From the IMG/VR virus record IMGVR_UViG_3300043409_000956, positions 29,093-93,092 of that record: a stretch of 64,000 bases of DNA. One strand, given 5' to 3'. Source of the DNA: a virus. The position numbers were made by a program, and so were the translations under genes. The notes beneath the pieces are model-generated. The model had not been told where the DNA came from. It did not search any database and saw nothing but the letters and a program-made list of their open reading frames with translations. Shown piece after piece: positions 357-64,000 of the stretch; positions within the stretch are counted from its first letter, which is position 1, and each line of letters begins with the position of its first letter.

Positions 357-371
357 ATTGGCACTACTCCC

Positions 372-400
372 AAACCGGACTGGTTGACTCTGTCCGGTTT
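372..400 (+). terminator. Hairpin between the secreted protein gene and dnaJ
   Basis: AAACCGGAC (372-380) pairs perfectly with GTCCGGTTT (392-400) around an 11-nt loop. The downstream T-richness is weak (TTTCTCGTTT), so it may be a weak terminator. The -35 box of the next promoter (384-389) lies in the loop. Confidence 0.5.
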
Positions 401-412
401 CTCGTTTATAAT
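384..412 (+). promoter_or_regulatory. Sigma70-like promoter for dnaJ
   Basis: TTGACT (384-389), 17-nt spacer, TATAAT (407-412). The ATG of dnaJ (420) lies 7 nt after the -10 box, so the start codon sits at the expected transcription start and the mRNA would be leaderless. The spacer has G at position 7 and TCT at positions 11-13, as in several other promoters of the window. Confidence 0.75.
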
Positions 413-419
413 AAGAGAT

Positions 420-1262
420 ATGACTCATTATGCCACATTAGGTGTTGCCGAAACAGCAACCGCAGACGAAATTAAACGAGCATATCGCGGTCTTGCATCT
501 AAACATCACCCCGACAAGGGTGGAGATACACAACGGTTCCAAGAGATACAGGCCGCATACGCTGTACTAGAAGACTCCAACCGGCGGGCACAGTATGATC
601 AAGAGCGTCGTAATCCTGGTGGTGGTTTTAGATTTAATGTAAATGGTCAAGATTTCGATCAAATGCCTCCAGAAATGGAAAATATATTTAGAAACTTTGG
701 ATTTCCGGGCAGTCCGTTTGGGGCACAACGCCATCCTAGAAAGAATAAAGATCTAAGAGTTGAAGTAGTAATGCCCTTGGCTGAAACACTACAAGAACAA
801 AAGAAAACATTGAGTGTACAGACCACAACAGGCCACAGGGAAACAGTAGAAGTAACAGTACCAAGGGGCATACACACAGGATCACAAATAAAATATCCCG
901 GCCTGGGGGATAACATGTTCAACACACTACCACGTGGGGATCTTTATATTGTGTTTACTGTGCCACCAGATCCCAAGTTTAAAGTAGACGGCGTTGATTT
1001 AATATCTAGAGTAGCAATTAATTGCTTAGATGCCATCACAGGTGGGGTCACAGAGATTACAGGGTTAGACGGGCGTGTGTTTGAACTACAGATACCTGTG
1101 GGAACACAACCTGGTACCCTGATGCGTGTGCGCGGAGAAGGATTGTATCATTTAAATCATACTGTTCGTGGCAATTTGTTGGTTGAAATTGTTGTTAGTG
1201 TGCCACAGAACCTGACTGAAACACAGTTAGAATTAATCCGACAAATTCAGTCTAACCAATAA
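420..1262 (+). CDS. dnaJ: DnaJ/CbpA-type co-chaperone (Hsp40)
   Basis: A 280-aa J-domain protein that would stimulate the ATPase of host DnaK and hand over client proteins. The N-terminal J domain is complete, with the HPD motif at residues 30-32 (KHHPDKGG). A Gly/Phe-rich linker follows (about residues 65-105, with GGGFRF and FPGSPFG), then two beta-rich C-terminal substrate-binding domains. The Cys-rich zinc domain of classical DnaJ is absent, so it is the CbpA/type II layout. The ATG at 420 was chosen because it starts the J domain exactly and lies just after a strong -10 box; an upstream in-frame ATG at 384 is inside the -35 box. ClpA follows, giving a chaperone/unfoldase pair. Confidence 0.93.
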   Translation: MTHYATLGVAETATADEIKRAYRGLASKHHPDKGGDTQRFQEIQAAYAVLEDSNRRAQYDQERRNPGGGFRFNVNGQDFDQMPPEMENIFRNFGFPGSPFGAQRHPRKNKDLRVEVVMPLAETLQEQKKTLSVQTTTGHRETVEVTVPRGIHTGSQIKYPGLGDNMFNTLPRGDLYIVFTVPPDPKFKVDGVDLISRVAINCLDAITGGVTEITGLDGRVFELQIPVGTQPGTLMRVRGEGLYHLNHTVRGNLLVEIVVSVPQNLTETQLELIRQIQSNQ

Positions 1263-32490: not shown

Positions 32491-32519
32491 TTGGCACAAA
32501 CGGCGATCTTTGTTACAAT
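32491..32519 (+). promoter_or_regulatory. Sigma70-like promoter for the exported hydrolase
   Basis: TTGGCA (32491-32496), 17-nt spacer with the shared G..ATCT element, TACAAT (32514-32519). The ATG follows after 6 nt (32526), so the transcript would be leaderless. Confidence 0.65.
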
Positions 32520-32525
32520 GCTTGC

Positions 32526-33320
32526 ATGAACCTAATAAATTTACTTAAAACCGGCTTTGTAATACTTTTGTACACCCTGTGTAACATGGGGAATTGTAAC
32601 AGTTTACAATTTATAGATGCGCCTAAACGTTTTTTTGGCAGTAAAGATCCCACTACCATTTACACTTTTAGTAACTCAAATGCTCGGGCTACAATAATAT
32701 TCTTTCCTGGTGGTGACGGTAGTTTTAAAATAAACGAAAACATAAAGAATCACAAAGGCCTGCCGCGGATGCTACAAATGATTGCTGATGCAGGTTATAA
32801 TGTAGTGTTTGTAGATAGTCCGTATCCGTTATTGGACTCTGGATCGGGCGGGTATCCCGCAATGCGAGATTCCGGCGATCATCTAGATAGAATGGATTCT
32901 GTATTAAAGCATCATCAAGGGCAAAATTTACCAATCTGGCTAATGGGTCATAGCAACGGGTCGTTTACTGTAAGTTCCTTTTTTTATCGCTTGCAAAAAG
33001 AACATAGAACAAAAGAAATCAGCGGAATAATTCTGTCAGGCACACGCAATGTTGCAAAGTTTCAAGATTCAATGGATACTAATGTTATATTTGTGCATCA
33101 TGAAAAAGATGGATGTTTTAACACATTATATCGAGATGCTGTAAACAATTACAACAAAGTAAAATCGTTTAACCAAGGACCAACTACGTTTATAACTATC
33201 ACCGGTGGCACTAGCGGTAGTATCCCCGGTGGTCCCAGCGGCCCCTGCTATTCGGGATACCATATGTATTATGATGCTCATACCGAAACTGTGCAAAATA
33301 TTTTATCTAAATTACCGTAA
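32526..33320 (+). CDS. Exported alpha/beta-hydrolase
   Basis: A 264-aa protein. The first 25 residues form a signal peptide or lipoprotein-like signal (LLKTGFVILLYTLCNMGNC). The hydrolase core has a strand followed by IIFFPGGDGSF (oxyanion region), the nucleophile elbow GHSNGS (Ser), and a late acidic/His region (DAHTETVQ near the C-terminus). It would act in the periplasm as an esterase, lipase or peptidase of unknown substrate. The independent promoter without leader and the export signal suggest a recently acquired, individually regulated gene (moron-like). Confidence 0.7.
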   Translation: MNLINLLKTGFVILLYTLCNMGNCNSLQFIDAPKRFFGSKDPTTIYTFSNSNARATIIFFPGGDGSFKINENIKNHKGLPRMLQMIADAGYNVVFVDSPYPLLDSGSGGYPAMRDSGDHLDRMDSVLKHHQGQNLPIWLMGHSNGSFTVSSFFYRLQKEHRTKEISGIILSGTRNVAKFQDSMDTNVIFVHHEKDGCFNTLYRDAVNNYNKVKSFNQGPTTFITITGGTSGSIPGGPSGPCYSGYHMYYDAHTETVQNILSKLP

Positions 33321-35453: not shown

Positions 35454-35459
35454 TAAATA
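35427..35459 (+). promoter_or_regulatory. Promoter cluster upstream of queD (sigma70 and late-type)
   Basis: TTGACA (35427-35432), 16-nt spacer, TATAAT (35449-35454), overlapping the stop of the preceding gene. Late-type CTAAATA (35436-35442) and ATAAATA (35453-35459) boxes overlap it. Confidence 0.55.
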
Positions 35460-35486
35460 CATAGCGGTCTTGGACATCATTCCCGC

Positions 35487-35515
35487 TTTACAAACTCTGC
35501 TGTCTATGCTAAAAT
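35487..35515 (+). promoter_or_regulatory. Second promoter of queD
   Basis: TTTACA (35487-35492), 17-nt spacer with G at 7 and TCT at 11-13, TAAAAT (35510-35515). It is followed by AGGAG and the ATG at 35534. Confidence 0.5.
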
Positions 35516-35533
35516 TAACATAGGAGAAACAGC

Positions 35534-36040
35534 ATGACAACATCGAATCCCGTAGTTTACAAGTACACCAGTACCAAAGAGTATCACGACGCATTTCCGT
35601 GCGCCTACAGACAGTGGAGGAGCGATAGCCATTGTAATTTAATACACGGATATTCATTCAGTATGAAGTTCTATTTTGGAACCGACGAACTGGATGTGCG
35701 TAACTGGGCCGCCGATTATGGTGGACTCAAAGAACTCAAGAAGACCTTAGAAGATCAATTCGATCACACACTTATTGTGGCAGCGGATGATCCTGAAATG
35801 GCAACATTCAAACTGTTACAAGAGCGCAACATGGCCAAGGTTGTTGTGTTACCCCGACTGGGCTGTGAAGGACTCAGTGACATGCTGTACAAGTATGTGA
35901 ATGGTGTTTACATTCCCGAAATGTGGGGTCCAGGTGAAGCCGCACGTTTATGGTGCTATCGTGTGGAAGTACGTGAGACACAAGCCAACATGGCTTTCCG
36001 TGAAGGTCACCGTGAATGGAATGAAGACCTATTTGCATAA
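35534..36040 (+). CDS. queD: QueD, 6-carboxy-tetrahydropterin synthase
   Basis: A 168-aa T-fold enzyme that converts dihydroneopterin triphosphate to 6-carboxy-tetrahydropterin in the preQ0 pathway. Recognisable parts are SHCNLIHGYSFSMKFYF (zinc and substrate site), FDHTLIV, GCEGLSDMLY and VEVRET. The usual HGH zinc motif is HGY here (residues 38-40), and an additional His (H33) precedes the Cys, so the metal ligands may be rearranged, as I also recall from marine phage QueD. It has two upstream promoters and overlaps the next gene by 20 nt. Confidence 0.85.
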   Translation: MTTSNPVVYKYTSTKEYHDAFPCAYRQWRSDSHCNLIHGYSFSMKFYFGTDELDVRNWAADYGGLKELKKTLEDQFDHTLIVAADDPEMATFKLLQERNMAKVVVLPRLGCEGLSDMLYKYVNGVYIPEMWGPGEAARLWCYRVEVRETQANMAFREGHREWNEDLFA

Positions 36041-45757: not shown

Positions 45758-46528
45758 ATGAATAACAAAGAACACCGCGCATTAGATTGCGAACTACAAA
45801 GACAACGCTACGCCGAAAATTCTGAACTGTTAAAAGGTTTGGGCTTTAATACTGACGTTATGAATATCAGACGTGTAGGCAGGGAATTAGCAACAGTTGA
45901 TACTTGGCGCTACATGGAAGACAAGGACCTTGAAGACCTCAAGGATTGTGTAACTGACTATGACTTGTATGAGTGGGTAGTTAACACCCAACTTGATCCT
46001 GCATTGTTAAAAACAGGATTGGTGCTTGAGTTTGGTACTGCAACTGGTCGTACATTGAATCAGTTTGCTTACTGGTTGCCAAACAAAACTATCCATGGAT
46101 TTGATAGTTGGCAAGGATTGCCTGAGAAGTTCAACGACTTGCCAGCAGGCCACTTTGCACAGGAACTGCCTAAGGTGTTGCCAAACTGCGAATTGGTACA
46201 AGGTTGGTTTGGAACTAGACCTCCACAAGATCAATCCAACATTGCAGAAAATATGGCACTGGCATTTGCCACCACTACACAGGAATCTATTGCACTTTTA
46301 CATCTGGATGCGGATTTGTACTCCAGTACAAAAACAGTCCTAAGTGCGTTTGCTAAACATATTGTTCCCGGCACTGTGATTTTGTTTAACGAGTATTGGA
46401 ACCATCCAACTTGGAAGAAACATGAATACCGGGCCTGGCAAGAACATTGTAAAATGCATAGCATTAAATACGAATACATTGGATATGCCAGTGATCATCA
46501 AGAAGTGGCAATTCGAGTAATCAAGTAG
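45758..46528 (+). CDS. TylF/MycF-type O-methyltransferase
   Basis: A 256-aa SAM methyltransferase of the macrocin-O-methyltransferase (TylF) family. Its motif I is VLEFGTATGRTLNQFA, followed by HGFDSWQGLPE, ELVQGWFGTRPP, LLHLDADLYSSTKTVL with the metal-binding acidic residues, and VILFNEYWNHPTWKKHEYRAWQEH. It would methylate a sugar hydroxyl, fitting the sugar genes in this phage. About 75 residues precede the catalytic domain. It has its own promoter with leaderless start. Confidence 0.82.
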   Translation: MNNKEHRALDCELQRQRYAENSELLKGLGFNTDVMNIRRVGRELATVDTWRYMEDKDLEDLKDCVTDYDLYEWVVNTQLDPALLKTGLVLEFGTATGRTLNQFAYWLPNKTIHGFDSWQGLPEKFNDLPAGHFAQELPKVLPNCELVQGWFGTRPPQDQSNIAENMALAFATTTQESIALLHLDADLYSSTKTVLSAFAKHIVPGTVILFNEYWNHPTWKKHEYRAWQEHCKMHSIKYEYIGYASDHQEVAIRVIK

Positions 46529-46529
46529 T

Positions 46530-46558
46530 TGACACAAAAAGATTTCTAGTGTAAACTA
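46530..46558 (+). promoter_or_regulatory. Sigma70-like promoter with spacer element (ParB-like operon)
   Basis: TTGACA (46530-46535), 17-nt spacer (G at position 7, TCT at 11-13), TAAACT (46553-46558). It starts the 46.6-48.9 kb nuclease group. Confidence 0.7.
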
Positions 46559-46563
46559 GAGAC

Positions 46564-46587
46564 ATGGTAGTGAATCCTACCTGCTAA
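46564..46587 (+). CDS. Leaderless mini-ORF (7 codons) ahead of the ParB-like gene
   Basis: ATG at 46564 lies 5 nt after the -10 box and encodes MVVNPTC before TAA (46585-46587). A 7-bp hairpin (CGGCAAC with GTTGCTG, 46601-46619) follows. A leader peptide regulating the next gene is possible, but the ATG may also only mark the transcription start. Confidence 0.3.
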   Translation: MVVNPTC

Positions 46588-46652
46588 CCGATAAACAACA
46601 CGGCAACATGGGGTTGCTGAGTTGTAATGGTTACGAACTAAAGGAAAATATC

Positions 46653-47840
46653 ATGGCTACTGCCACGCAATCTTATGCGGCTACAAAAAACGCCGTCTTT
46701 CTTAACTCTTCTTCCAACCTTGTTGATCTTGTCAAGCGTCTAAACGACACCATTGCCGCAATGCCCATCCAGGCACAACGCAATTGGCAGGCAAAACTTG
46801 CCAAAGCACTGGCAACATTTAAAAAGAACCACCCCGGCTTGACGAGTATAAACGATCCCAAACGATTCCGTTTGTGTAAGAGCCTGGTGGGCAAACTCCG
46901 AGACATTGTAATTGATACCACAATGCAACGGGAACCCAATTTGCAATGGATCCTTACCATCATTGAAAACTTCCGTGCATATCAGGCACAACCTATTCAA
47001 GTGTATGCCACTGGTGAGCAGTGGGGTGGGTGGGATGGTCAACACACCTCGATAGCCTTGTACTTGATTGCTGTACACGGACTTGGCGAAAACTTTGACG
47101 ATGTTGAAGTACCTATCAATGTGTACGATATTTCAAGTCGTGGCGAACTTCGCAGTAATTTCATTAACAACAACACCACAGTGGGCAAAAACGCAGGCAA
47201 AAAGCCTCTGGACATTATCGACATCTTTATGCAAAAGATTTACGGTGTTGAAGTTGATGGTGTTAACGAACCCGAGTGGGTTGAAGCACACCATAAATGG
47301 AAATACATTGCCGCGGCAGACATGTTCCTAACAGCAGAAAAGTTCAATGACACTGACCAAGCAGGTGCTATTAGTCGTCTCAATGAATTGGATGCGGCCA
47401 CAGTGGCGGTGGTGCGACAATTTGCTGTGTATGGCCGATATGTTGTTGCATCTCAACAACGCCCGATTAACACAAAAGAAATTCCTATCATTATTGAATT
47501 CCTAAACTTGTGTGAACAACAAGATATCACGTATACCGATGCCGAACTTGAAGACCTGGCACAACATTGTATTGACTTGTTTAACGCAAACTTTGATGCC
47601 AAAGGTCCATACTGGGACCAAGTGCATCAAGCCAACATGAATGCATGGACCAAGCACAATCGGAATCGTCCCAAGACTGATTGGAGTGATCCACCACGCA
47701 ACAGCAAGAACACACCACAAGGTACGGCATTCTTTTGGCATCAACTAAACAATAGTTGGGTTCCTGCACAGCCCACAGGCTTTAAATTTCCCAAGATGCC
47801 GTTTAGTGCATACACACCCGACGCAAAGGACTTGTTTTAA
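46653..47840 (+). CDS. ParB/sulfiredoxin-like fold protein
   Basis: A 395-aa protein. The segment IQVYATGEQWGGWDGQHTSIALYLIAV holds the DGQH motif typical of ParB-like nuclease and sulfiredoxin folds. It is preceded by a helical N-terminal region (LVDLVKRLNDTIAAMPIQAQRNWQAKLAKAL) and followed by a long helical C-terminus with LNLCEQQDITYTDAELEDLAQ. It may bind DNA or act as a nuclease or ATPase. ATG 46653 has an AAAGGAAAAT site; the upstream ATG at 46608 is part of the leader. A likely early gene. Confidence 0.65.
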   Translation: MATATQSYAATKNAVFLNSSSNLVDLVKRLNDTIAAMPIQAQRNWQAKLAKALATFKKNHPGLTSINDPKRFRLCKSLVGKLRDIVIDTTMQREPNLQWILTIIENFRAYQAQPIQVYATGEQWGGWDGQHTSIALYLIAVHGLGENFDDVEVPINVYDISSRGELRSNFINNNTTVGKNAGKKPLDIIDIFMQKIYGVEVDGVNEPEWVEAHHKWKYIAAADMFLTAEKFNDTDQAGAISRLNELDAATVAVVRQFAVYGRYVVASQQRPINTKEIPIIIEFLNLCEQQDITYTDAELEDLAQHCIDLFNANFDAKGPYWDQVHQANMNAWTKHNRNRPKTDWSDPPRNSKNTPQGTAFFWHQLNNSWVPAQPTGFKFPKMPFSAYTPDAKDLF

Positions 47841-47841
47841 T

Positions 47842-48321
47842 ATGAGTCACTTTTTATACATTCATCCCTGTATGGCAGGTACATCTGACGTATGGAAGAT
47901 TGGAGTTACCAAAACACCTTATTCGGCTGTGCGTGGTCGCCAAAAATACACCTGGGCCAAGTTTGGCCTTACACATTTGTATTTTGGAGAACCCAACGAT
48001 GTGTTGTGGTTAGAGCAACGAATCAAAGACATCTACCAGAACTTGTCGGGCAAGGCCATACAGGGTTACGGAACTGAGTTGTTCAAGATTGCAATAAAAC
48101 AACTATGTGCTGAGATCAATGGCCTTATCGAAAAATGCAATCTCAAAGTGATTGCAGTCAGTCTCAAAGAACCCTATACTGCAAGTTCAAGTGGCAAATG
48201 TCCTTTTGGTATTCCCAGTGAAATCTATGCTGATTTCTTTCTTGAATCTGTAGCAGATGAAGTTTTTAGTCAACCAACTTGGCCTAAGACTTTAGGCAAA
48301 CAAGTATTTTTAAAGAGTTAA
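47842..48321 (+). CDS. GIY-YIG-like nuclease (T5orf172-like)
   Basis: A 159-aa protein whose N-terminus FLYIHPCMAGTSDVWKIGVTKTPYSAVRGRQKYTW carries a VWKIG-T....AV..R pattern close to the GIY-YIG/T5orf172 fold, followed by EQRIKDIYQN with a likely metal Glu. It would cut or nick DNA. It lies directly after the ParB-like gene and before the HNH-like gene, suggesting a nuclease set aimed at host or competitor DNA. Confidence 0.6.
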   Translation: MSHFLYIHPCMAGTSDVWKIGVTKTPYSAVRGRQKYTWAKFGLTHLYFGEPNDVLWLEQRIKDIYQNLSGKAIQGYGTELFKIAIKQLCAEINGLIEKCNLKVIAVSLKEPYTASSSGKCPFGIPSEIYADFFLESVADEVFSQPTWPKTLGKQVFLKS

Positions 48322-48325
48322 TATA

Positions 48326-48895
48326 ATGAAACCCCTAATTGAACGTGTCACTGGGTTTGCACAAAAGAAACCCACACCTGTAAAACGTGGCGGTGCCAGT
48401 TACGACTCCACATATAAATTTTGTGTGCGTGGATTGAAACTGTGTGTTTGGATGTATCGACGTCTTAAGGTTGAGGACCAAACTGCACGTTTGATTAGGG
48501 ACGTCATGGACTTCTTGTTGCGTAGGTATCATGGGTACGCCATCAAGGAAAACATTGGAGCCCATTATTACGAAAAAGGTTTGCCACACGGAACCAAAAC
48601 TGAATTTGAACATGTGATACCTGCAAGTGTGGCACGAGACATGTTGTTGTATGATCGCCTTACCATTGACGAGGCTTTGAATATCCCAACTTGTAAGTTA
48701 AGCAAGAGCAAACACAAGAAGTTGAACTCAACTAAATTAGGTTCAACCACTCCGGACATTTATAACTTTTGGCAACGCTACCAAAGCCTCAACATCAGTG
48801 TGGAAACACATGATGGCACGGCAGTTGATTTAAAAACTTGGAATTTGGACACGCACTATCAAAAGTTTTTAGGCTCAAAATTGCTTAAATTTTAA
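48326..48895 (+). CDS. HNH-like endonuclease
   Basis: A 189-aa protein. TEFEHVIPASVARDML carries the EH(V/I)(I/V)P core of HNH nucleases. Then TIDEALNIPTCKLSKSKHKKLNS supplies the Cys and distal His/Asn typical of the C-terminal half of the motif. The N-terminus is basic (KKPTPVKRGG). It may degrade host DNA or act as a homing-type nuclease. A terminator follows. Confidence 0.55.
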   Translation: MKPLIERVTGFAQKKPTPVKRGGASYDSTYKFCVRGLKLCVWMYRRLKVEDQTARLIRDVMDFLLRRYHGYAIKENIGAHYYEKGLPHGTKTEFEHVIPASVARDMLLYDRLTIDEALNIPTCKLSKSKHKKLNSTKLGSTTPDIYNFWQRYQSLNISVETHDGTAVDLKTWNLDTHYQKFLGSKLLKF

Positions 48896-48905
48896 GCAGA
48901 AAAAG

Positions 48906-48929
48906 GTAATACTCTAGTACTACTTTTTT
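48906..48929 (+). terminator. Rho-independent terminator
   Basis: GTAATACT pairs with AGTACTAC (one mismatch) around a 2-nt loop, then six T. It closes the ParB-like/nuclease group. Confidence 0.6.
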
Positions 48930-48963
48930 GTTGTACTAAAACAACACCCGATTTGCCCGAAAT

Positions 48964-48992
48964 TTGACCCCGAATGGTATCTATTATATAAT
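48964..48992 (+). promoter_or_regulatory. Sigma70-like promoter with spacer element
   Basis: TTGACC (48964-48969), 17-nt spacer, TATAAT (48987-48992). An ATG at 48999 lies 6 nt downstream and opens a 9-codon frame that overlaps the AAGGAG site of the next gene (ATG 49022). Confidence 0.75.
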
Positions 48993-49021
48993 ACTTGTAT
49001 GGTGTTTAAAAAGGAGCTAAA

Positions 49022-49297
49022 ATGTTGAAATTTGCAAACGTCGCTAAAGTTGGAGATACAATCCGTGCATACGATTTCAAGCCCATGAAGGGCCGTGAAG
49101 ATTGTTTTGTAGAAGGTGTTGTTAAACGAATTGACAATAAATTATATGATGCTTTTGTAATTGAAGTCACATATGATTCTTGGGACGAGGACACCGAGGG
49201 TAAACAAATACACGGTCGTGTTGGCAAAGAAATTTTGGTTCCATTTGAAGTCAGCTTCATGGAATTTGACGCCCGTGTTATGAACTTGAGCCGCTAA
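49022..49297 (+). CDS. Small conserved phage protein
   Basis: A 91-aa protein: VGDTIRAYDFKPMKGREDCFVEGVV forms a small beta barrel-like N-terminus, then VKRIDNKLYDAFVIEVTYDSWDEDTEGKQIHGRVG. Proteins of this kind are common in marine T4-like phages. It has a strong promoter and AAGGAG site, pointing to early, abundant expression. Role unknown. Confidence 0.65.
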   Translation: MLKFANVAKVGDTIRAYDFKPMKGREDCFVEGVVKRIDNKLYDAFVIEVTYDSWDEDTEGKQIHGRVGKEILVPFEVSFMEFDARVMNLSR

Positions 49298-49303
49298 TAA
49301 CGG

Positions 49304-49332
49304 TTGACCCGAAAAGGCATCTTTTGTATAAT
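49304..49332 (+). promoter_or_regulatory. Sigma70-like promoter with spacer element
   Basis: TTGACC (49304-49309), 17-nt spacer containing AAAAGGCATCTTTTG, TATAAT (49327-49332). It drives the gene at 49363. Confidence 0.75.
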
Positions 49333-49362
49333 ACTTGTATAGAAACTAAAAAGGGGTTAGAA

Positions 49363-49590
49363 ATGTCAGAAGTAAATGCAGTTCCGTATTTTGGTATGTT
49401 TACAGATGCCGGCAATGTAGAAGTTTCCGTTATTGTAGAACATGCCAAGTCCAACAGCCTCAATTGGCCCCAAACGTATAAACTGTTGGAACAATTGGCA
49501 AAGGTCCCGGGCTATGGCGAAGTGTTGGACACCATGGTTCGTGAAATTGTGTATGATGCTTTGAGCTTTGAAACTACTTTTTACATTTAA
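49363..49590 (+). CDS. Small acidic early-type protein
   Basis: A 75-aa protein (AVPYFGMFTDAGNVEVSVIVEHA, LLEQLAKVPGYGEVLDTMVREIV). It has its own promoter 31 nt upstream and an AAGGGG site. Candidates of this size in early regions often modify host functions, but nothing in the sequence shows which. Confidence 0.6.
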   Translation: MSEVNAVPYFGMFTDAGNVEVSVIVEHAKSNSLNWPQTYKLLEQLAKVPGYGEVLDTMVREIVYDALSFETTFYI

Positions 49591-49614
49591 TTTTTAACAA
49601 TCGGAGAACTTAAA

Positions 49615-49839
49615 ATGACTTCAAACAAAACCGCACTAACTGCAATAGTTGAATGGGTGAACTTTCGCAAGAGCCTTGGTGTTTCATCAGTCAAACGGGT
49701 TGAACTGCAAGTTGCCGCAGAAATGTCTAACAATTTAGAACTTATTGTTTTAGATAAAGAAACATTAGAAGAAGTTGCACGCCTAACAGGCGGTACATAT
49801 ATTACTAGTACTGGTGCCAAATCAAAAATCGTATTTTAA
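49615..49839 (+). CDS. Small early-type protein
   Basis: A 74-aa alpha/beta protein (AIVEWVNFRKSLGVSSVKRVELQVAAEM then LELIVLDKETLEEVARLTGG). It follows the previous gene by 24 nt with a CGGAG site and probably shares its promoter. Not recognised. Confidence 0.6.
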   Translation: MTSNKTALTAIVEWVNFRKSLGVSSVKRVELQVAAEMSNNLELIVLDKETLEEVARLTGGTYITSTGAKSKIVF

Positions 49840-49840
49840 T

Positions 49841-49869
49841 TTGACAGTAAAAGACATCTTTAGTAAACT
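49841..49869 (+). promoter_or_regulatory. Sigma70-like promoter with spacer element (MoxR gene)
   Basis: TTGACA (49841-49846), 17-nt spacer containing AAAAGACATCTTTAG, TAAACT (49864-49869). The ATG at 49913 has an AAGGAG site. Confidence 0.75.
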
Positions 49870-49912
49870 AGATTCTGTGTTAGTAACAAAGACATTTTTT
49901 AAGGAGTAAGTA

Positions 49913-51013
49913 ATGTCCGTGACCGAAAACCGTAGTGTAACCCCCAATGAATGCCGTAGCCGTGTGCTTCGTGCATTTAAAAACAAACGCCCTGTGTTCT
50001 TATGGGGTCCTCCTGGAATTGGTAAGTCAGAATTGATTGCTGGCATTACTGAAGACTTGGGTGGACACATGATTGACCTGCGCCTGGGTCAGATGGAACC
50101 CACAGACATTCGTGGTATCCCGTTCTTTAACAAGAACAAAGAAGTCATGGATTGGGCTCCTCCTATCGACTTGCCTGATGCAGAGATGGCCAAGCAATTT
50201 CCTATTATTGTGCTATTCCTAGACGAAATGAATAGTGCGGCTCCGGCTGTACAGGCCGCGGGTTATCAACTTATTTTGAACCGTCGTGTTGGTAAGTACC
50301 ATTTGCCAGACAATGTTGTAATTGTTGCGGCAGGTAATCGCGAAAGCGACAAGGGTGTTACTTATCGTATGCCTAGTCCGCTGGCAAATCGCTTTGTTCA
50401 CTTGGAAGTGCGTCCGGACTTTGAGAGTTGGCAACAATGGGCTGTGGGACAAAAAATCCACAAGGATGTTGTGGGTTACATCTCCTTTGCCAAACAAGAC
50501 ATGTTTGACTTTGATCCAAAGAGCGCAAGTCGTGCATTTGCCACCCCACGTACCTGGACCTTTGTGAGCCAGTTCTTGTATGACGAGGATGCAACCGACG
50601 CTGAATTGGCTGACTTGATTGCAGGTACAGTAGGCGAAGGCCTGGCTCTTAAGTTTATGGCACACCGCAAGGTTGCAAGTCAAATGCCTAATCCAACAGA
50701 AATTTTAAGTGGCAAGGTCAAGGACTTGAAGGTCAAAGAAATCAGTGCCATGTACAGTTTGACAATTAGCCTGTGTTATGAACTTCAAGACAGTTTCAAG
50801 AAACTGGGCAAGGATAAACTTGCAGACTGGCATGCCCAAGCAGACAACTTCCTTGGCTTTATGATGGCTAATTTTACTACCGAGTTGGTTGTTATGGGTG
50901 CTCGTGTTGCACTTACCACATACAACCTGCCCATGGTACCGGGCAAGATGAAGAACTTTGACGAGTTCCATAAGCGTTTCGGTAAGTACATTATTGCGGC
51001 GTCAGGCAAATAA
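49913..51013 (+). CDS. MoxR-family AAA+ ATPase
   Basis: A 366-aa ATPase. Walker A is GPPGIGKS (32-39), then LGQMEPTDIRGIPFF, Walker B IIVLFLDEMNSA, and an arginine-finger context in SPLANRFVHLEV. MoxR ATPases act as chaperones that activate or assemble partner complexes, typically with a VWA-domain protein; here one is encoded two genes downstream (51567-52820). MoxR-VWA pairs are known in large phages and bacteria. It carries a promoter of the spacer-element type. Confidence 0.85.
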   Translation: MSVTENRSVTPNECRSRVLRAFKNKRPVFLWGPPGIGKSELIAGITEDLGGHMIDLRLGQMEPTDIRGIPFFNKNKEVMDWAPPIDLPDAEMAKQFPIIVLFLDEMNSAAPAVQAAGYQLILNRRVGKYHLPDNVVIVAAGNRESDKGVTYRMPSPLANRFVHLEVRPDFESWQQWAVGQKIHKDVVGYISFAKQDMFDFDPKSASRAFATPRTWTFVSQFLYDEDATDAELADLIAGTVGEGLALKFMAHRKVASQMPNPTEILSGKVKDLKVKEISAMYSLTISLCYELQDSFKKLGKDKLADWHAQADNFLGFMMANFTTELVVMGARVALTTYNLPMVPGKMKNFDEFHKRFGKYIIAASGK

Positions 51014-51077
51014 GTTCCGTTGGTCGCGGGTGGGGGCAGATGTAAATCGTAAGTCCCCCTTATTAAGGATTGGTAAA

Positions 51078-51515
51078 ATGGAATTTGTTGTCCCAGAAGA
51101 TTTTGTAGAAATTAATCCGCTACCACCTGTGTTGCGTATGCTGGGTCCTTTTTATATTAAACGGGTAGATGGACAACCAACACAAATTGGATATCGTACA
51201 ACGGCCCAACATCAGCGTACCCCACAGGGCCATGTTGGTGGTGGTATCTTACTTAACCTATGCGATTTTGCCATTGGCTATGTGGTTGGAATTGAACACT
51301 TTGGTTCAATGAAAGGTGTGCATAATATTGCCACCATCAGTTTGAGTACAGACTTTATTGCCAGTCCAAAGATAAACGAATGGTTGGTGACCGAAGTAGA
51401 AGTGCTCCGTGTGGGCAATAGGGTTGGGTTTGGTCAATGTATTGTTAAATCAGACAACCGTATTGTTTGTCGTGCAAGTGCCAACTTTGCTATAATTGAG
51501 CTTAAACCTGTTTGA
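51078..51515 (+). CDS. PaaI-like hotdog-fold thioesterase
   Basis: A 145-aa hotdog protein. PQGHVGGGILLNLCDFAIGY is the PaaI-type catalytic helix region (HGG motif with Asp/Glu nearby) and VTEVEVLRVGNRVGFGQCIVKSDNRIVCRASANFAII is the terminal beta sheet. It would hydrolyse acyl-CoA or acyl-ACP thioesters. Start at ATG 51078 with an AAGGATTG site. It sits between the MoxR ATPase and its VWA partner; the lipid link (desaturase upstream) is only suggestive. Confidence 0.75.
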   Translation: MEFVVPEDFVEINPLPPVLRMLGPFYIKRVDGQPTQIGYRTTAQHQRTPQGHVGGGILLNLCDFAIGYVVGIEHFGSMKGVHNIATISLSTDFIASPKINEWLVTEVEVLRVGNRVGFGQCIVKSDNRIVCRASANFAIIELKPV

Positions 51516-51540
51516 CCCAAAAAGACATCAATTGTATAAT
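51512..51540 (+). promoter_or_regulatory. Sigma70-like promoter with spacer element (VWA gene)
   Basis: TTGACC (51512-51517), 17-nt spacer containing AAAAAGACATCAATTG, TATAAT (51535-51540). It overlaps the stop of the thioesterase gene; ATG of the next gene at 51567. Confidence 0.75.
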
Positions 51541-51566
51541 TACATTATAGAAATCAAGGAGTTTGT

Positions 51567-52820
51567 ATGTCAGATGTAGTAGAAAAAGAAAAAGTAGTAA
51601 CAGTTACCAATCCAAAAACTGATGCCGCAGTTCGTGAAAAATTAATCACTGCTCGCATTGGACTCTTGCTCAAGGCTCCGTTCTTTGGTAATCTTGCAAC
51701 CCGCATGACCTTGGTCAATGCAGATGACTGGTGCCCCACTGCCGCAACAGACGGCCGCAAATTTTATTATAATTCAGAATTTGTAAACAAAATGCCACTC
51801 AAGCAGGTGGAATTCTTAGTGGGACACGAAGTGCTACATGCGGTGTATGACCATATGGGTCGTACCGGAGATCGCGATCGCAAAATTATGAACATTGCGG
51901 CAGACTATTGTGTTAATGCTGACTTGATTGAGCAACGCATTGGTGAGAAGATCACTGTATGTGGTATGTTGTACGATCCCAAGTACAAAGGCTGGAGCAT
52001 GGAAGAAGTCTATGATGACTTGATGAAGAATGCCAACAAAATTGATATTGGCAAACTGGCCCAAATGGTCTTGGACGAGCACTTGGATGGTGAAGGCGAG
52101 GGAGAAGGCGACAGTAAAGACGGCAAGGGTCGCCCTAAACTAAGCGAAGCTGAACGCAAGGCCATCAAAGACGAGATCAAAGAGGCTGTACTACAAGCCG
52201 CTCAGGCCGCTGGTGCTGGTAACTTGCCCGGTGGTGTTAGACGCATGATCAAGGACTTGACAGAACCCATGATTGGTTGGAAAGAATTGTTGGAGCAACA
52301 AATTCAAAGTACTATCAAGAACGACTTTACATTTGCTCGCCCTAGTCGTAAAGGTTGGCACATGGATGCCATCATGCCTGGCATGAAGCCTGGAGAAACT
52401 ATCGATATCTTTATTGGCATTGACACATCTGGTAGTATCGGTCCAGAAGATTTAAAAATCTTCTTTAGCGAGATCAAAGGTATCATGGATAGTTATACTG
52501 AGTACAAGATACATGTTGTAGGTTGGGATACTGAGATTGGTGGTGTTGGTGAGTTTACTAGCGACAACATGGCAGACATTACCGAGTTTGACCCTTTGGG
52601 TGGTGGTGGCACTGATCCCATGTGCGTGTGGCAGTACCTGCGTGAAAACAACATAGAACCCAAGAAGTTGATCATGTTCACTGACTATTGTTTCTTTGGA
52701 TGGGAGCCTAGTACAGTTGAAAACTATTGCGATACAGTTTGGATTATCAAAGGTAACCCCAGTGCTGAACCTGAGTTTGGTGTGTGGGCACACTACGAAG
52801 AAGCCGCAAAAGGAAAATAA
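51567..52820 (+). CDS. VWA-domain protein with HExxH (DUF2201-like metallopeptidase)
   Basis: A 417-aa protein. The N-terminal half has GHEVLHAVYDHM with HEVLH at 87-91 (HExxH-type zinc motif) and a following NIAADYCVNADLI. A long acidic, Gly/Lys-rich linker (GEGEGEGDSKDGKGRP) precedes a C-terminal von Willebrand A domain with the MIDAS motif DTSGS at 286-290 and a later GGGGTDPMC. Such proteins pair with MoxR ATPases, two genes upstream. They may act as a protein-remodelling complex on host targets. It has its own promoter. Confidence 0.85.
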   Translation: MSDVVEKEKVVTVTNPKTDAAVREKLITARIGLLLKAPFFGNLATRMTLVNADDWCPTAATDGRKFYYNSEFVNKMPLKQVEFLVGHEVLHAVYDHMGRTGDRDRKIMNIAADYCVNADLIEQRIGEKITVCGMLYDPKYKGWSMEEVYDDLMKNANKIDIGKLAQMVLDEHLDGEGEGEGDSKDGKGRPKLSEAERKAIKDEIKEAVLQAAQAAGAGNLPGGVRRMIKDLTEPMIGWKELLEQQIQSTIKNDFTFARPSRKGWHMDAIMPGMKPGETIDIFIGIDTSGSIGPEDLKIFFSEIKGIMDSYTEYKIHVVGWDTEIGGVGEFTSDNMADITEFDPLGGGGTDPMCVWQYLRENNIEPKKLIMFTDYCFFGWEPSTVENYCDTVWIIKGNPSAEPEFGVWAHYEEAAKGK

Positions 52821-59515: not shown

Positions 59516-61246
59516 TTATTTCTTACGAGCCTTTGCTCTACCAGCCTTCATGTTGGCCAACCAGTGTGCCATGCGTTGCTTTTCACCTGATGAATTCTTT
59601 GCTGTCTTGCGTAATGAACTTACACTGGCCTTGGTATTGACACCTGAGCGTTTGGCCAATCCTTTACGTCCGGGATTTTTACCATCAGCAAAGTTTTCGT
59701 TTAATCCAAATCCATCCCGAACAGCATTCATTAGTTCGCTCACACTGGCTTCTGTGGTTGGAAGTGTATCTTGTTCGCCAATATGCGGGTCGCCTTCTTC
59801 AACAGTACCCAACGCATAAGTGAACATACTGTCACCTTCATTGTCAATGATAACAATATAGTATTCATCAGTCATTGCGCCACGAGTCGTGAATATAAAA
59901 GATCCATCGTCTTTACGCTGGCCTTTCCACCCCATGGCTCTCATTGCGCTGTTGATTTTATTCACAACTTCTGGCCAAGGTAACATATTGCCTAATGAGA
60001 AGCCTTCCGCCACACCCGGTGTATGTGTGGGTTGTGTCAATTGAGAGAACTCACGCCTGGCATGTTGTAGGGCATCAACTGCATGAGTTGATGACATTGC
60101 CTTCTTTCTTTTGTCAGTCTTTTTCCATATGACCGCGGCTTGACCATTGTCAATACTTTGTATTTGACCTATCTGCCATGGATTGTCTGGATGTCGTACC
60201 CAGTCGCCGCGATAGACGCCTTCCGTCATGCCTTGTAGATTCTTCTTGGCATATGATAGTTGTATTTTAGGAATCTGTAAGTTTAATCCTGGTGGTGGCC
60301 AGGTGGCCATCTGTGGGTGTGGCGCCGGGTCCAATGGTGGTGGTTCTCCGGGTCTTGGTTGATTACTTGCTTTCCATTGCTTCTCTGCTGTAAGATAATC
60401 TTGATACTGCTGGTTATATGCTTGTTGGGCCTGAGTAAATATGGCCTGATATGCGTCCATTACTTGAATTATATAATTAAAGTAAGTGGCACTCACTTTG
60501 AATTCTTGTGGATTTGCCGTTGCCCATTTGTTTATATCATCTCTGAAATTGTCGATTATTCCATTTGCGTACGATGTAACAAAAGTTTCTCTCTCGCCTG
60601 GCGGTTCATAGTATATGCTTTTTTGTAAATGTCCTAAATAACCTTGTAATCGTGCAGGAATACTTTCCAAGTAACCCTCAAGGCTACCATCATGTTGTCC
60701 ACCTTGGGTGGCCCCTGTTCCGTGCTGTGTTGAAAAATCTTTGTAATACTCATCATTCTGTATACCAATAACTGAGTTAGTTCCGGCGACACCGTGAAAC
60801 CCCACATTCATTTGTTTAAAGGCTGTGTCTATGGCCGTACCGCGGTCGCCTTTGTAGTATTGGGCTTTAATGCCATTGGGAACACTACTACCTTCGGGTG
60901 CCAATACAATAGCACGACCCAAGTTTATTTCGCCTTCGTTGTTGAATCTATACCAGGTGTCTTCTGCTCTAGCACCGGCGGCTTGATCTCTTGGCATCTC
61001 TGCAGGATTTGCAATGATCACATACTTACCGGGAAATTTACCCATATTATGATCGCCCACCATGCTATTAACAGTGAAGTGTAGGGTGTTTCTCTGACTA
61101 TGACCGTTAAACCTAGCGATTGCAGTCAATGATCCATCACCATTGGCCTGTATGTTATCCAACCCATCAACAACTCTGACTAATCTATAACCACCGGCTG
61201 GTGCTTCAGTAAGAGTAGATTCTACAATGATGTCTTTGATTTTCAC
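59516..61246 (-). CDS. Modular protein with capsid-targeting-like N-terminus and basic C-terminus
   Basis: A 576-aa protein. It begins MKIKDIIVESTLTEAPAG, in which IVE|S and LTE|A resemble T4-type prohead protease sites. A long first module (about 15-335) has DxxR, YxxG and Pro-rich segments. It is joined at GMTEG (339-343) to a small beta module (YRGDWVRHPDNPWQIGQIQSID), then at GVAEG (411-415) to an acidic module (PWPEVVNKINSAMRAM). A strongly basic C-terminus (GKNPGRKGLAKRSGVNTKAS, then SSGEKQRMAHWLANMKAGRA) is similar to the DNA-facing tails of phage head proteins I know. It is probably packaged and processed. Last of a three-gene operon (ATGA with the upstream gene). Confidence 0.6.
   Translation of the reverse strand: MKIKDIIVESTLTEAPAGGYRLVRVVDGLDNIQANGDGSLTAIARFNGHSQRNTLHFTVNSMVGDHNMGKFPGKYVIIANPAEMPRDQAAGARAEDTWYRFNNEGEINLGRAIVLAPEGSSVPNGIKAQYYKGDRGTAIDTAFKQMNVGFHGVAGTNSVIGIQNDEYYKDFSTQHGTGATQGGQHDGSLEGYLESIPARLQGYLGHLQKSIYYEPPGERETFVTSYANGIIDNFRDDINKWATANPQEFKVSATYFNYIIQVMDAYQAIFTQAQQAYNQQYQDYLTAEKQWKASNQPRPGEPPPLDPAPHPQMATWPPPGLNLQIPKIQLSYAKKNLQGMTEGVYRGDWVRHPDNPWQIGQIQSIDNGQAAVIWKKTDKRKKAMSSTHAVDALQHARREFSQLTQPTHTPGVAEGFSLGNMLPWPEVVNKINSAMRAMGWKGQRKDDGSFIFTTRGAMTDEYYIVIIDNEGDSMFTYALGTVEEGDPHIGEQDTLPTTEASVSELMNAVRDGFGLNENFADGKNPGRKGLAKRSGVNTKASVSSLRKTAKNSSGEKQRMAHWLANMKAGRAKARKK
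60003..60016 (-). repeat. 14-nt joint repeat, minus-strand copy
   Basis: The reverse complement of GGTGTGGCGGAAGG, encoding GVAEG at residues 411-415 of the modular protein. It is identical to the three plus-strand copies at 9454, 9769 and 9979, about 50 kb away. Confidence 0.8.
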
Positions 61247-61263
61247 TGCTGACTCCTTTTGGC
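61218..61263. repeat. 46-bp direct repeat, copy A
   Basis: This 46-bp block spans the stop of the ParB-like gene and the start of the next one. Read on the minus strand it encodes AKRSQQ-stop and, in the other frame, MKIKDIIVES. Copy B is at 61976-62021 with one mismatch (45/46). Confidence 0.9.
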
Positions 61264-62004
61264 CACATCCTGTTTGCTGATTTCTTCTATGTCCTTGTCT
61301 GCTACTATTTGCACAGGAATACTTTTTGTATCCGACAATTTATAGGCCCAGAATCTATGATGTCCATCTAACACTTGATATCCATTTTTGTATTTGCGAA
61401 CCAACAATGGAGGAAGTTTGTCACCCTTCTTTAAGCCAGCAATAATCTTTTCAACATTGGCTCGGCTCTTAGGTTGTTGCATCTTTGAATCTGGCTCGAA
61501 CCCCACTAGCCTATTGGCAGATATGTTGACTACCGGCAAGCTATCAAACCCTGCGTCATCTACTTCTGCCCCAAAATAGCCAGGGTCTGTGTATAATTTG
61601 ATCTTGCCTTCTGTGAGTTTCTTAGCAGGAACCCAGGCCATGATATCAGTTCGATTCAATAGTTCTGCCGCGGCCCAGGCTCTATGTGCCCCATCCAGTA
61701 TGTGTCCTTCAGCATCCGCCACAACAGGTTTTTTATCTACATGGTGTTGACTATACTCTCTAGCATGGTCAACATCAACAAACATGGCTCGACCATATGG
61801 ATCATTGCCTTCGTCTTCATCATTGGGTACATGTAGACTAGACAATGGCACACGCTTTAATTCATATTGCGGGTTACGCATTATTAATCGTTTTAAGAAC
61901 CCGCCACCTTGTTGGTCTTTGGGATGAATGCCACCCACATAATCCCATATCTGCTCTGCGCTGGCCATGTTTGAGGATTCTACAATGATGTCTTTGATTT
62001 TCAC
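61243..62004 (-). CDS. ParB/sulfiredoxin-like protein with two DGxHR motifs and CTS-like N-terminus
   Basis: A 253-aa protein that starts MKIKDIIVESSNM, as its downstream neighbour does, and ends AKRSQQ. Two ParB-like half-domains are visible: PVVADAEGHILDGAHRAWAA (DGAHR 104-108) and LLVRKYKNGYQVLDGHHRFWAY (DGHHR 213-217), separated by an LTEG joint (130-133). ParB-like folds of this type bind nucleotides or act as nucleases or kinases. If packaged and cut at the Glu sites, it would release two small ParB-like units in the new host. ATGA overlaps on both sides. Confidence 0.7.
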   Translation of the reverse strand: MKIKDIIVESSNMASAEQIWDYVGGIHPKDQQGGGFLKRLIMRNPQYELKRVPLSSLHVPNDEDEGNDPYGRAMFVDVDHAREYSQHHVDKKPVVADAEGHILDGAHRAWAAAELLNRTDIMAWVPAKKLTEGKIKLYTDPGYFGAEVDDAGFDSLPVVNISANRLVGFEPDSKMQQPKSRANVEKIIAGLKKGDKLPPLLVRKYKNGYQVLDGHHRFWAYKLSDTKSIPVQIVADKDIEEISKQDVAKRSQQ

Positions 62005-62021
62005 TGCTGAATCCTTTTGGC
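61976..62021. repeat. 46-bp direct repeat, copy B
   Basis: Same block at the junction of the first and second minus-strand genes: AKRIQQ-stop and MKIKDIIVES. Copy A is 758 bp away, so the whole ParB-like gene is bracketed by the two copies. Confidence 0.9.
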
Positions 62022-64000
62022 AAATGCCACAGCCTTGTTGATATCTTCTCGTGTGAACCGTTTCAATTCACCGCGCTGTACCAACTGTTGAATATCTGCT
62101 AGATCAAGGTCTGCGTATTGGGTTTCAAAGCCGCCTGTGACATCTTCACCCACCAGGGCTTCTTCACTGTCAAATCGACCGCGGCAGTCATATGCTGACC
62201 CATCTGAGGCAACCGTGTACACATGATCCACTCGATATTCATCATCTTCGGCCGTATCGTCTTCCCACCCCACATGAGCACGGATCTGCCACGCAGGGTG
62301 CAACATCTTCAGTGCAATGGCCATCACATGACAATGCCCGGCCATGTAGTCTTGGTCTTCGTTTACATTTTTTTTGACTTGTCTCAATGTGTATGTGACC
62401 TGGCCGGTGCGGTGATGTTGCCGAACCTGGTAACCCATGGCGCTGGCATAACGATTGACCATTCTATCATACAGTTTGGCACGACTTTCAGGATTTATAT
62501 TGGTACCGTATGGCGCCATGTCCACTTGGGGATCTTTACTGGCTGAGAATTCAATTGATTCAGGATTGTGTGCGTGAACAAATTGTCGAATAGCCGACAG
62601 CACTGTGGCAAACACTTCTTGTGCATTGCCTGCACCTGTGACTTCTTGGCTGTTGCCTCTCCAGAAGCTGACTGACCAGTCTGTGGGTGAGTCATTTGTC
62701 CAGGCCTCGGGCTCAAACATCACACTTAGTGCGGTGCCGTCTGACAATCGGGCAATGGCGTCAACTGCTTCACTTTCTTCACTTTGTTCCCAGTCAATAC
62801 CTCTGGGTTGATCAAAGGCTTCTGTTATGCCTGTGCTCCGGCGTACCCCAAATTCAAAATTTTCATCGCCGGGGTTGTATCCTTTAATGAACTTGTAATA
62901 ATATTCTTCTGCCTGTGCAGGTGTGTTGGCTTCGAAACGATCAATGACACGAGCAGGATTATTGACATCATATATTTCATAATTCTTGTTCAGGCGTTCA
63001 CGAGCTTGACTCATGCGGTCCAATCTGCGACTGATTTGACGGTCTGATCGACTTAGATAATTTTGCAGTAACCGGTCACTGATTTCGTTCAGCTCTTCGC
63101 CCATGGTCTTTTGAACCGGCCGCCAGTGGAACACAGTCATGCCCATGTTGGGATATTCTTCGTGCGCCCACTTTGCGCCTAATATGTCCTGTATCACCGG
63201 AACAAAATACTTGCGATACAAGCCGGCACGATTATCTTCCTTGGCTGTAAATGATATGCCGGGAGGACGAGATTTTTTAATATATTCTGGTAATCGTTGT
63301 TTGACCACATTGAGAACTGTGCTCAATATTTTGACAGTACTCTTGCTGGCACTTGTGGGCCGACTAGGTGTGTCATAGTTGCCATTCACAGTGAATGTAA
63401 TGTGTAAGGTGTCGTTAAACTCACTGCGGTCAAAGAACACATCTACCCACTGATTGTCCACTGTGGCATGAAACAGGCTATTTTTTCTTTTGCGATTGGC
63501 TTTGTAGTCAGCAGGTGCGTTGCCTAGTTCGTTGATCTGATCTTCTGCCACAGCAGGTTCTTGCTTGGGTTGTTTGACTGGTTTCTGTATTTGTGTCAGC
63601 GTATAGGTTGCGCCACCAGGATAATCTTGTCTTGTCAAATTGTAACCGGTGCCGCTGATATAGCGTTGAATCATTCTATCATACAGTCGAGCTCTACTGC
63701 CTGTGGGGTCGTCTTCTTTTTCTGCGCTAAAATTCAACATTGCTGGTTTACGCTTGGCAATAAATTGCCGCATGGCCGTCAGCACAGTGGCAAACACTCG
63801 CTGGGCATCGCCTTCTCCGGTGATCTCCATGTTTTCATCACGCTCAAATTCCACCATCCACTGGTTGTCGCCTTGAGACATGAACAGCACAATTAACTCA
63901 CTGCCGTCATCTAAATCGGCTGTGGCATGCCAGTCACCATTTGTTTTGGTCCATTGTATAGCGTAAGGTTGATCAAAGGCTTCGGACAGCTCTGTTTCTC
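62001..64000 (-). CDS. Large modular protein with three repeated domains and papain-like C-terminus (5' end beyond window)
   Basis: The frame is open to the window edge, giving at least 665 aa without the N-terminus. It contains three copies of a domain of about 130 residues: one after EAFDQP at 63966-63983, a divergent one around 63110-63480, and one after EAFDQP at 62805-62822. Each has ..VFATVL.A.RQF.., FSA.K...RA.LYDRM and ..YTL.Q..K. The EAFDQP joints are preceded by LSE and ITE (like cleavage sites). The C-terminal part (AGHCHVMAIALKM, VDHVYTVASDGSAYDCRGRF) has a Cys...His...Asp order resembling papain-like peptidases. An ATG codes only for an internal Met; the true start is outside. 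Probably packaged, role unknown. Confidence 0.6.
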   Translation of the reverse strand, partial: ETELSEAFDQPYAIQWTKTNGDWHATADLDDGSELIVLFMSQGDNQWMVEFERDENMEITGEGDAQRVFATVLTAMRQFIAKRKPAMLNFSAEKEDDPTGSRARLYDRMIQRYISGTGYNLTRQDYPGGATYTLTQIQKPVKQPKQEPAVAEDQINELGNAPADYKANRKRKNSLFHATVDNQWVDVFFDRSEFNDTLHITFTVNGNYDTPSRPTSASKSTVKILSTVLNVVKQRLPEYIKKSRPPGISFTAKEDNRAGLYRKYFVPVIQDILGAKWAHEEYPNMGMTVFHWRPVQKTMGEELNEISDRLLQNYLSRSDRQISRRLDRMSQARERLNKNYEIYDVNNPARVIDRFEANTPAQAEEYYYKFIKGYNPGDENFEFGVRRSTGITEAFDQPRGIDWEQSEESEAVDAIARLSDGTALSVMFEPEAWTNDSPTDWSVSFWRGNSQEVTGAGNAQEVFATVLSAIRQFVHAHNPESIEFSASKDPQVDMAPYGTNINPESRAKLYDRMVNRYASAMGYQVRQHHRTGQVTYTLRQVKKNVNEDQDYMAGHCHVMAIALKMLHPAWQIRAHVGWEDDTAEDDEYRVDHVYTVASDGSAYDCRGRFDSEEALVGEDVTGGFETQYADLDLADIQQLVQRGELKRFTREDINKAVAFAKRIQQ

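What the first reader, a model, noticed from the sequence alone, without database searches (positions are those of the whole stretch)
46530..51540. Promoter family with a conserved element inside the 17-bp spacer
Promoters at 46530, 48964, 49304, 49841 and 51512 have TTGAC(A/C), exactly 17 bp, then TATAAT or TAAACT, and spacers of the form cAAAAGRcATCtttG. G at spacer position 7 and TC at 11-12 are also kept at 384, 32491 and 35487. A normal sigma70 spacer is not conserved, so an extra contact by a phage factor or host subunit is likely; the genes served look early.
Basis: seen in the sequence. Interest (0 to 1): 0.65.

Follow-up and report, generated by a model that had tools for sequence, protein, structure and literature searches.

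The report
Jumbo-phage promoters with conserved spacer
This uncultured giant phage starts many of its genes from near-identical promoters whose normally meaningless middle stretch carries a conserved sequence at a fixed position; relatives keep the same key bases, so some unidentified protein probably reads it there.

Summary
Five window promoters, plus two more in the same 93-kb record, have TTGACN, a 17-bp spacer and TATAAT/TAAACT. Their spacer consensus is NNNAAWGRNATCTWTWG. Chosen without looking at the spacer, the record's promoters show spacer conservation far above shuffles (z 13). Flanks of the seven sites are at chance (27-28% identity) while spacer positions 4-13 are 77% identical, so recent local duplication is excluded.

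The window is a fragment of a T4-like jumbo phage, collinear with a 320-kb relative. There AAWGR sits exactly at spacer 4-8 in 31 of 50 promoters. It is rare at other offsets, in control viral contigs, in bacteria, and in T4, RB49, RaK2 and CBB. Orthologous promoters rarely change positions 4, 5 and 7 (2/111 versus 55/444 elsewhere). A hairpin or strict dyad was tested and rejected. tRNA promoters of the 320-kb relative lack the element.

So this is a real, selected, lineage-specific sub-element of T4-type early-like promoters. What reads it is unknown. I favour a phage-specified factor acting with RNA polymerase (0.45) over host polymerase alone (0.30).

The parts
46529..46557 (+). Member promoter: TTGACA-CAAAAAGATTTCTAGTG-TAAACT; starts right behind the stop codon of ORF 45758-46528
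48964..48992 (+). Member promoter: TTGACC-CCGAATGGTATCTATTA-TATAAT; serves 91-aa ORF 49022-49297
   Evidence: orthologues in G002 and G003
49304..49332 (+). Member promoter, closest to consensus: TTGACC-CGAAAAGGCATCTTTTG-TATAAT; serves short ORF starting at 49363
49841..49869 (+). Member promoter: TTGACA-GTAAAAGACATCTTTAG-TAAACT; serves MoxR-like AAA ATPase 49913-51013
51512..51540 (+). Member promoter: TTGACC-CAAAAAGACATCAATTG-TATAAT; the stop codon of the upstream ORF (ends 51515) lies inside the -35; serves DUF2201 gene 51567-52820
   Evidence: G009 orthologue TTGACC-AATAAAGAAAACAGTGT-TATAAT
32491..32519 (+). Divergent member: TTGGCA-CAAACGGCGATCTTTGT-TACAAT, ATG of ORF 32526-33320 only 6 nt after the -10 (probably leaderless)
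   Evidence: orthologue in G002 TTGGCG-TAAAAGGCAATCATTAG-TATAAT
384..412 (+). Not a member: promoter overlapped by hairpin ACCGGAC...GTCCGGT (terminator-like); serves DnaJ-domain gene
35487..35515 (+). Not a member: part of the conserved 5' leader of PTPS-family gene 35534-36040; real promoter is 35427
49022..49297 (+). 91-aa ORF of unknown function served by 48964
49913..51013 (+). MoxR-like AAA ATPase served by 49841
51567..52820 (+). DUF2201 metallopeptidase/VWA protein served by 51512
   Evidence: PF13203 E 1.9e-40, PF09967 E 7e-15

Best explanation
These are the strong sigma70-type, probably early, promoters of one lineage of T4-like jumbo phages. The spacer carries a selected sub-element: A at -26 and -25, W at -24, G at -23, R at -22, and in the window's own clade also ATC at -20 to -18. 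AAWGR lies about one helical turn downstream of the -35 hexamer, in rigid register with the 17-bp promoter. Most likely it is read on the RNA polymerase-promoter complex by a phage-specified protein (carried in the virion, or made early and acting as activator or shut-off factor). That would mark this set of protein-coding genes and leave tRNA-type promoters alone. Shown: the element, its register, its conservation between orthologues, its absence from tRNA promoters.
For: Spacer-blind conservation: z 13.2, 12.9 and 39 in G000, G001 and G009. The flanks are near zero bits while spacer 4, 5 and 7 reach 0.76, 0.97 and 0.80 bits in G009. AAWGR at spacer 4-8 only: 7/12, 9/20 and 31/50, with 4 or fewer at all other offsets together; control viral contigs 1/18, bacteria 0/13, T4/RB49/RaK2/CBB none. 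In orthologous promoters positions 4, 5 and 7 changed in 2 of 111 cells, others in 55 of 444, Fisher p 2e-4. Orthologues from the more distant G009 keep the left half and lose the right half. All 7 member promoters of the record are followed by an SD-preceded ORF, versus 1 of 5 other promoters. 0 of 33 element promoters but 5 of 27 others precede a tRNA in G009, p 0.015. T4 and RB49 share the host E. coli yet have different spacer consensus, so host polymerase alone does not dictate it.
Against: No reader protein was identified: no MotA, sigma region 2 or RNAP beta domain in the relatives searched (the AsiA search had no positive control), and no DNA-binding domain in the ORFs scanned near the sites. 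The records are fragments. A factor made only after infection could not help the first round of early transcription. A/T at -26/-25 recurs in several lineages, which host polymerase or DNA bending could explain.
Confidence: 0.45

Rival explanations
1. Host RNA polymerase alone reads the spacer: the sequence tunes DNA bend and shape near -25 and contacts around -20 to -13, making very strong promoters, with no extra factor.
For: A at -26/-25 is shared by G000 and G009, and A-rich spacer starts recur in G007, G016 and G013. G009 also has TGn and an A at -6. The literature describes extra consensus in T4 early promoters as optimising host polymerase (PMC2988021), spacer shape effects, and a beta' contact at -22 to -18 (PMC10911233).
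Against: The constant G at -23 and the rest of the spacer differ between lineages, even between T4 and RB49 on the same host. tRNA promoters of the same phage lack the element. The window sequence at -22..-18 (RNATC) is not the described Z consensus AACCT.
Confidence: 0.3
2. History: one promoter cassette spread by duplication and recombination within the lineage, and the spacer is a relic without function.
For: Leaders are also partly alike (-6..+20 identity 0.45), each lineage has its own version, and T4-like phages are known to shuffle promoter cassettes (PeSLs, cited in PMC4503421).
Against: Conservation is position-specific and orthologues change neighbouring positions but hardly ever 4, 5 and 7; outer flanks are at chance.
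Confidence: 0.13
3. The spacer encodes an RNA hairpin (composite terminator/promoter, PeSL type) or a dyad operator for a dimer.
For: AAAGRNATCTTT looks palindromic; CBB, RaK2 and RB49 promoters do overlap hairpins (mean z -3.8, -1.7, -1.35), and so does window site 384.
Against: Mean hairpin z is -0.34 for the seven members. No compensatory changes; pairs 5-14 and 6-13 are broken in about half of 29 spacers. G009 lacks the right half and shows no convincing covariation inside the spacer.
Confidence: 0.07

Closest known systems
T4-type early promoters (T4, RB49, RB69, Aeh1)
   Same: sigma70-type -35 and -10, upstream of short early ORFs, consensus extends beyond the hexamers and differs between phages (PMC2988021, PMC1524935; T4 and RB49 re-measured)
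   Different: T4 has GTTTAC, TGn and an A-rich UP region; none of the compared T4, RB49, RaK2 or CBB promoters has AAWGR at spacer 4-8
RpoD-like promoters of Pectobacterium phage CBB and RaK2
   Same: repeated promoters before short unknown ORFs in T4-like jumbo phages (PMC5259590), with a conserved spacer
   Different: there the spacer is largely one arm of a hairpin across the -35; in the window phage it is not
PeSL promoter/terminator cassettes of T4-like phages (Arbiol 2010, Comeau 2014; papers not held, known from citations and memory)
   Same: repeated early promoters in variable regions; window site 384 and stem-loops upstream of some members resemble it
   Different: the seven members as a set have no stem-loop overlapping the promoter
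Z-element of the spacer (-22 to -18, beta' subunit)
   Same: a spacer sequence read in the polymerase complex (PMC10911233)
   Different: different position and sequence; here -26 to -22 AAWGR
T4 middle promoters (MotA/AsiA)
   Same: a phage factor working with sigma70 next to the -35
   Different: the MotA box replaces the -35; here the -35 is intact and no MotA was found

Membership tests
T4-type early promoter | good sigma70 -35/-10 with about 17 bp spacing | tested here: met
T4-type early promoter | placed before mostly short ORFs of unknown function | tested here: met
   median ORF 92 aa in the record, 108 aa in G009
T4-type early promoter | TGn extended -10 | tested here: inconclusive
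   present in G009 (T 34/52, G 30/52) but not as TGn in the window members
T4-type early promoter | A-rich UP-like region at -40 to -44 | tested here: not met
   no clear A enrichment at these positions in G000
T4-type early promoter | transcribed immediately after infection by host polymerase | not testable with these tools
   no expression data
PeSL composite promoter/terminator | stem-loop overlapping or joined to the promoter | tested here: not met
   mean z -0.34 for the seven members; met only for site 384
MotA/AsiA middle promoter | MotA box in place of -35, MotA and AsiA encoded | tested here: not met
   -35 intact; no MotCF match; AsiA search uninformative
Z-element promoter | AACCT-like sequence at -22 to -18 | tested here: not met
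   consensus there is RNATC
Dyad operator | two-fold symmetric half sites kept across sites | tested here: not met
   no covariation, half of the sites break the symmetry

The most novel reading that the evidence does not exclude
A previously undescribed promoter element at -26 to -22, read by a phage-encoded RNA polymerase-bound factor that keeps the -35 contact, which switches a whole set of jumbo-phage genes; other T4-like jumbo phages carry their own spacer versions.
Probability: 0.33. Interest if true: 0.72.

Novelty: new variant of a known kind. Interest (0 to 1): 0.5.

Why it matters
The bases between -35 and -10 are usually treated as free. Here they are under position-specific selection in dozens of promoters, and several T4-like jumbo-phage lineages have their own conserved spacer. 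That gives a concrete handle on an open question: how T4-type phages single out, and later shut off, their early promoters (the shut-off mechanism is unknown even in T4, PMC2988021). It also warns that promoter surveys scoring only the hexamers miss the signal separating real phage promoters from chance matches.

Tried and rejected
Local duplication: rejected by flank identity. RNA hairpin and dyad: rejected. MotA, sigma70 region 2 and RNAP beta domain: none found in relatives; AsiA uninformative because its control did not ring. T4-type late promoter TATAAATA: depleted, not used to define classes. Host identification through bacterial genomes: 27 hits, mostly Clostridia, no link to this phage. 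Near-DNA search against named phages: no match. GcrA-type GANTC sites in the spacer: the sequence is GRNATC, not GANTC. The full PeSL papers are not held.

Full report
Setting. The window is bases 29093-93092 of a 93,092-bp IMG/VR virus record. I read the remaining 29 kb too. Its family-B DNA polymerase is closest, among named phages, to the jumbo phages Sinorhizobium phage Phosso (51.5%) and Agrobacterium phage Atu_ph07 (48%). A 320-kb uncultured contig (G009) is collinear with it, with DNA polymerase 87% identical and a median of 52% over shared ORFs; a 105-kb contig (G001) is closer still. The window is therefore a fragment of a T4-like jumbo phage. The host is unknown.

Observation. The five promoters are as described, with the first at 46529. 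Two more lie at record 13203 and 13576. To avoid choosing sites by their spacer, I collected every TTGAC-N17-TATAAT/TACAAT/TATACT/TAAACT. Spacer information exceeds within-spacer shuffles in all five records tested: z 13.2 (12 sites, own record), 12.9 (G001), 4.1 (G002), 39 (52 sites, G009) and 20 (G013). In G009, positions 4, 5 and 7 carry 0.76, 0.97 and 0.80 bits, while bases upstream of about -43 are near zero. Between the seven members the outer flanks are 27-28% identical and spacer 4-13 is 77% identical, which excludes recent local duplication.

Anatomy. In the window's clade (29 distinct spacers, a set chosen with the pattern) positions 4, 5, 7, 11 and 12 are nearly invariant, and 2, 9, 14 and 16 are free. 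In G009 only the left half AAWGR is kept. AAWGR occurs at offset 4-8 in 31 of 50 G009 promoters and at all other offsets together in 4. Numbering the last base of the -10 as -7, AAWGR covers -26 to -22, about one helical turn downstream of the -35. The seven members of the own record are each followed by an SD-preceded ORF, six with 26-43 nt and one with 95 nt after the -10; only one of five other matches is. In G009, 8 of 30 element promoters place an ATG 5-6 nt after the -10, which suggests leaderless mRNAs.

Selection. Among 37 orthologous promoter pairs (some overlapping in lineage), positions 4, 5 and 7 changed in 2 of 111 cells, positions 1-3 and 9-17 in 55 of 444, p 2e-4. The G009 orthologue of the DUF2201 promoter keeps TTGACC-NNWAAAGA and replaces much of the rest. 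This argues for constraint rather than passive spread of a cassette.

A class, not a general requirement. Of 27 other sigma70-type promoters in G009, five sit just before tRNA genes; none of the 33 element promoters does. Several element-free promoters are identical between G009 and G010, hence probably real.

Comparison with other phages. The same procedure on named phages shows that a lineage-specific spacer is common in T4-like phages, but the sequences differ. T4 has a weak GGATGTGG-like pattern. RB49 has GGGGATC-N3-GATCCCC inside the spacer. RaK2 has AGTACTG. CBB has AGAGTACTT or a hairpin across the -35. Atu_ph07 has an 18-bp TTATTTTTGAATAGTGTA. Uncultured contigs G007, G012 and G013 have yet others. 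In CBB, RaK2 and RB49 many spacers are hairpin arms, as expected of composite terminator/promoter cassettes. In the window phage the hairpin test fails (mean z -0.34) and no compensatory changes exist.

Sites to remove from or keep in the list. 384: hairpin ACCGGAC/GTCCGGT around the -35, MFE -15.7 kcal/mol for the stretch, in front of a DnaJ-domain gene. 35487: within a conserved leader of a PTPS-family gene; the promoter is 35427. 32491: a true but divergent member, because the G002 orthologue fits the consensus and has a good -10.

Mechanism. Because register with -35 and -10 is rigid and the element was found at 17-bp promoters, it is probably read in the polymerase-promoter complex. Host polymerase alone is possible, but it would not explain why T4 and RB49, on one host, differ, nor why tRNA promoters lack the element. 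I therefore favour a phage-specified factor (0.45), then host polymerase (0.30), history (0.13), and hairpin/operator (0.07). No factor was found, and expression timing is untested.

Novelty. Extended early-promoter consensus is known for T4-like phages (PMC2988021, PMC1524935), and RpoD-like promoters are known for CBB (PMC5259590). In the papers I could search I found no description of this spacer element or of lineage-specific spacer versions across jumbo phages; subscription papers are not covered. I file it as a new variant of a known kind.

Noticed in passing
window 366-425: Terminator-like hairpin ACCGGAC...GTCCGGT overlaps the -35 of the promoter of a DnaJ-domain gene; conserved in G001.
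   Followed up: partly
window 35455-35536: Conserved 5' leader of a PTPS (QueD-like) gene, with one stem that would cover the Shine-Dalgarno and start codon; kept in G002 and G009, no Rfam match: candidate unknown translational regulator of queuosine-type genes.
   Followed up: partly
window 32491-32526; G009 (L290-L299): ATG placed 5-6 nt after the -10 in the 32491 promoter and in 8 of 30 G009 element promoters: likely leaderless mRNAs.
   Followed up: partly
L298:7515-7589 and L298:876-1270: The relative G009 carries a tRNA with anticodon CTA (possible amber suppressor) with its own promoter, and a tmRNA candidate.
   Followed up: no
window 49913-52820: MoxR-like AAA ATPase and DUF2201 VWA/metallopeptidase gene, each with its own element promoter; MoxR ATPases were noted in group 2.2 jumbo phages (PMC7824862).
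   Followed up: partly
whole record and G009: T4-type late promoter TATAAATA is depleted (1 found versus 9 expected; 9 versus 25), so late transcription probably uses another signal.
   Followed up: no
L385-L394 (Atu_ph07), L375-L384 (Phosso), G007, G012: Each phage has its own repeated promoter with a conserved spacer, e.g. Atu_ph07 TTGACA-TTATTTTTGAATAGTGTA-TAACTT and G007 TTGACC-AATAAATCCCAATTTGC-TATAAT.
   Followed up: partly
window 59516-63890, minus strand: Three large minus-strand ORFs, the middle one ParB-like, against an otherwise plus-strand gene order.
   Followed up: no
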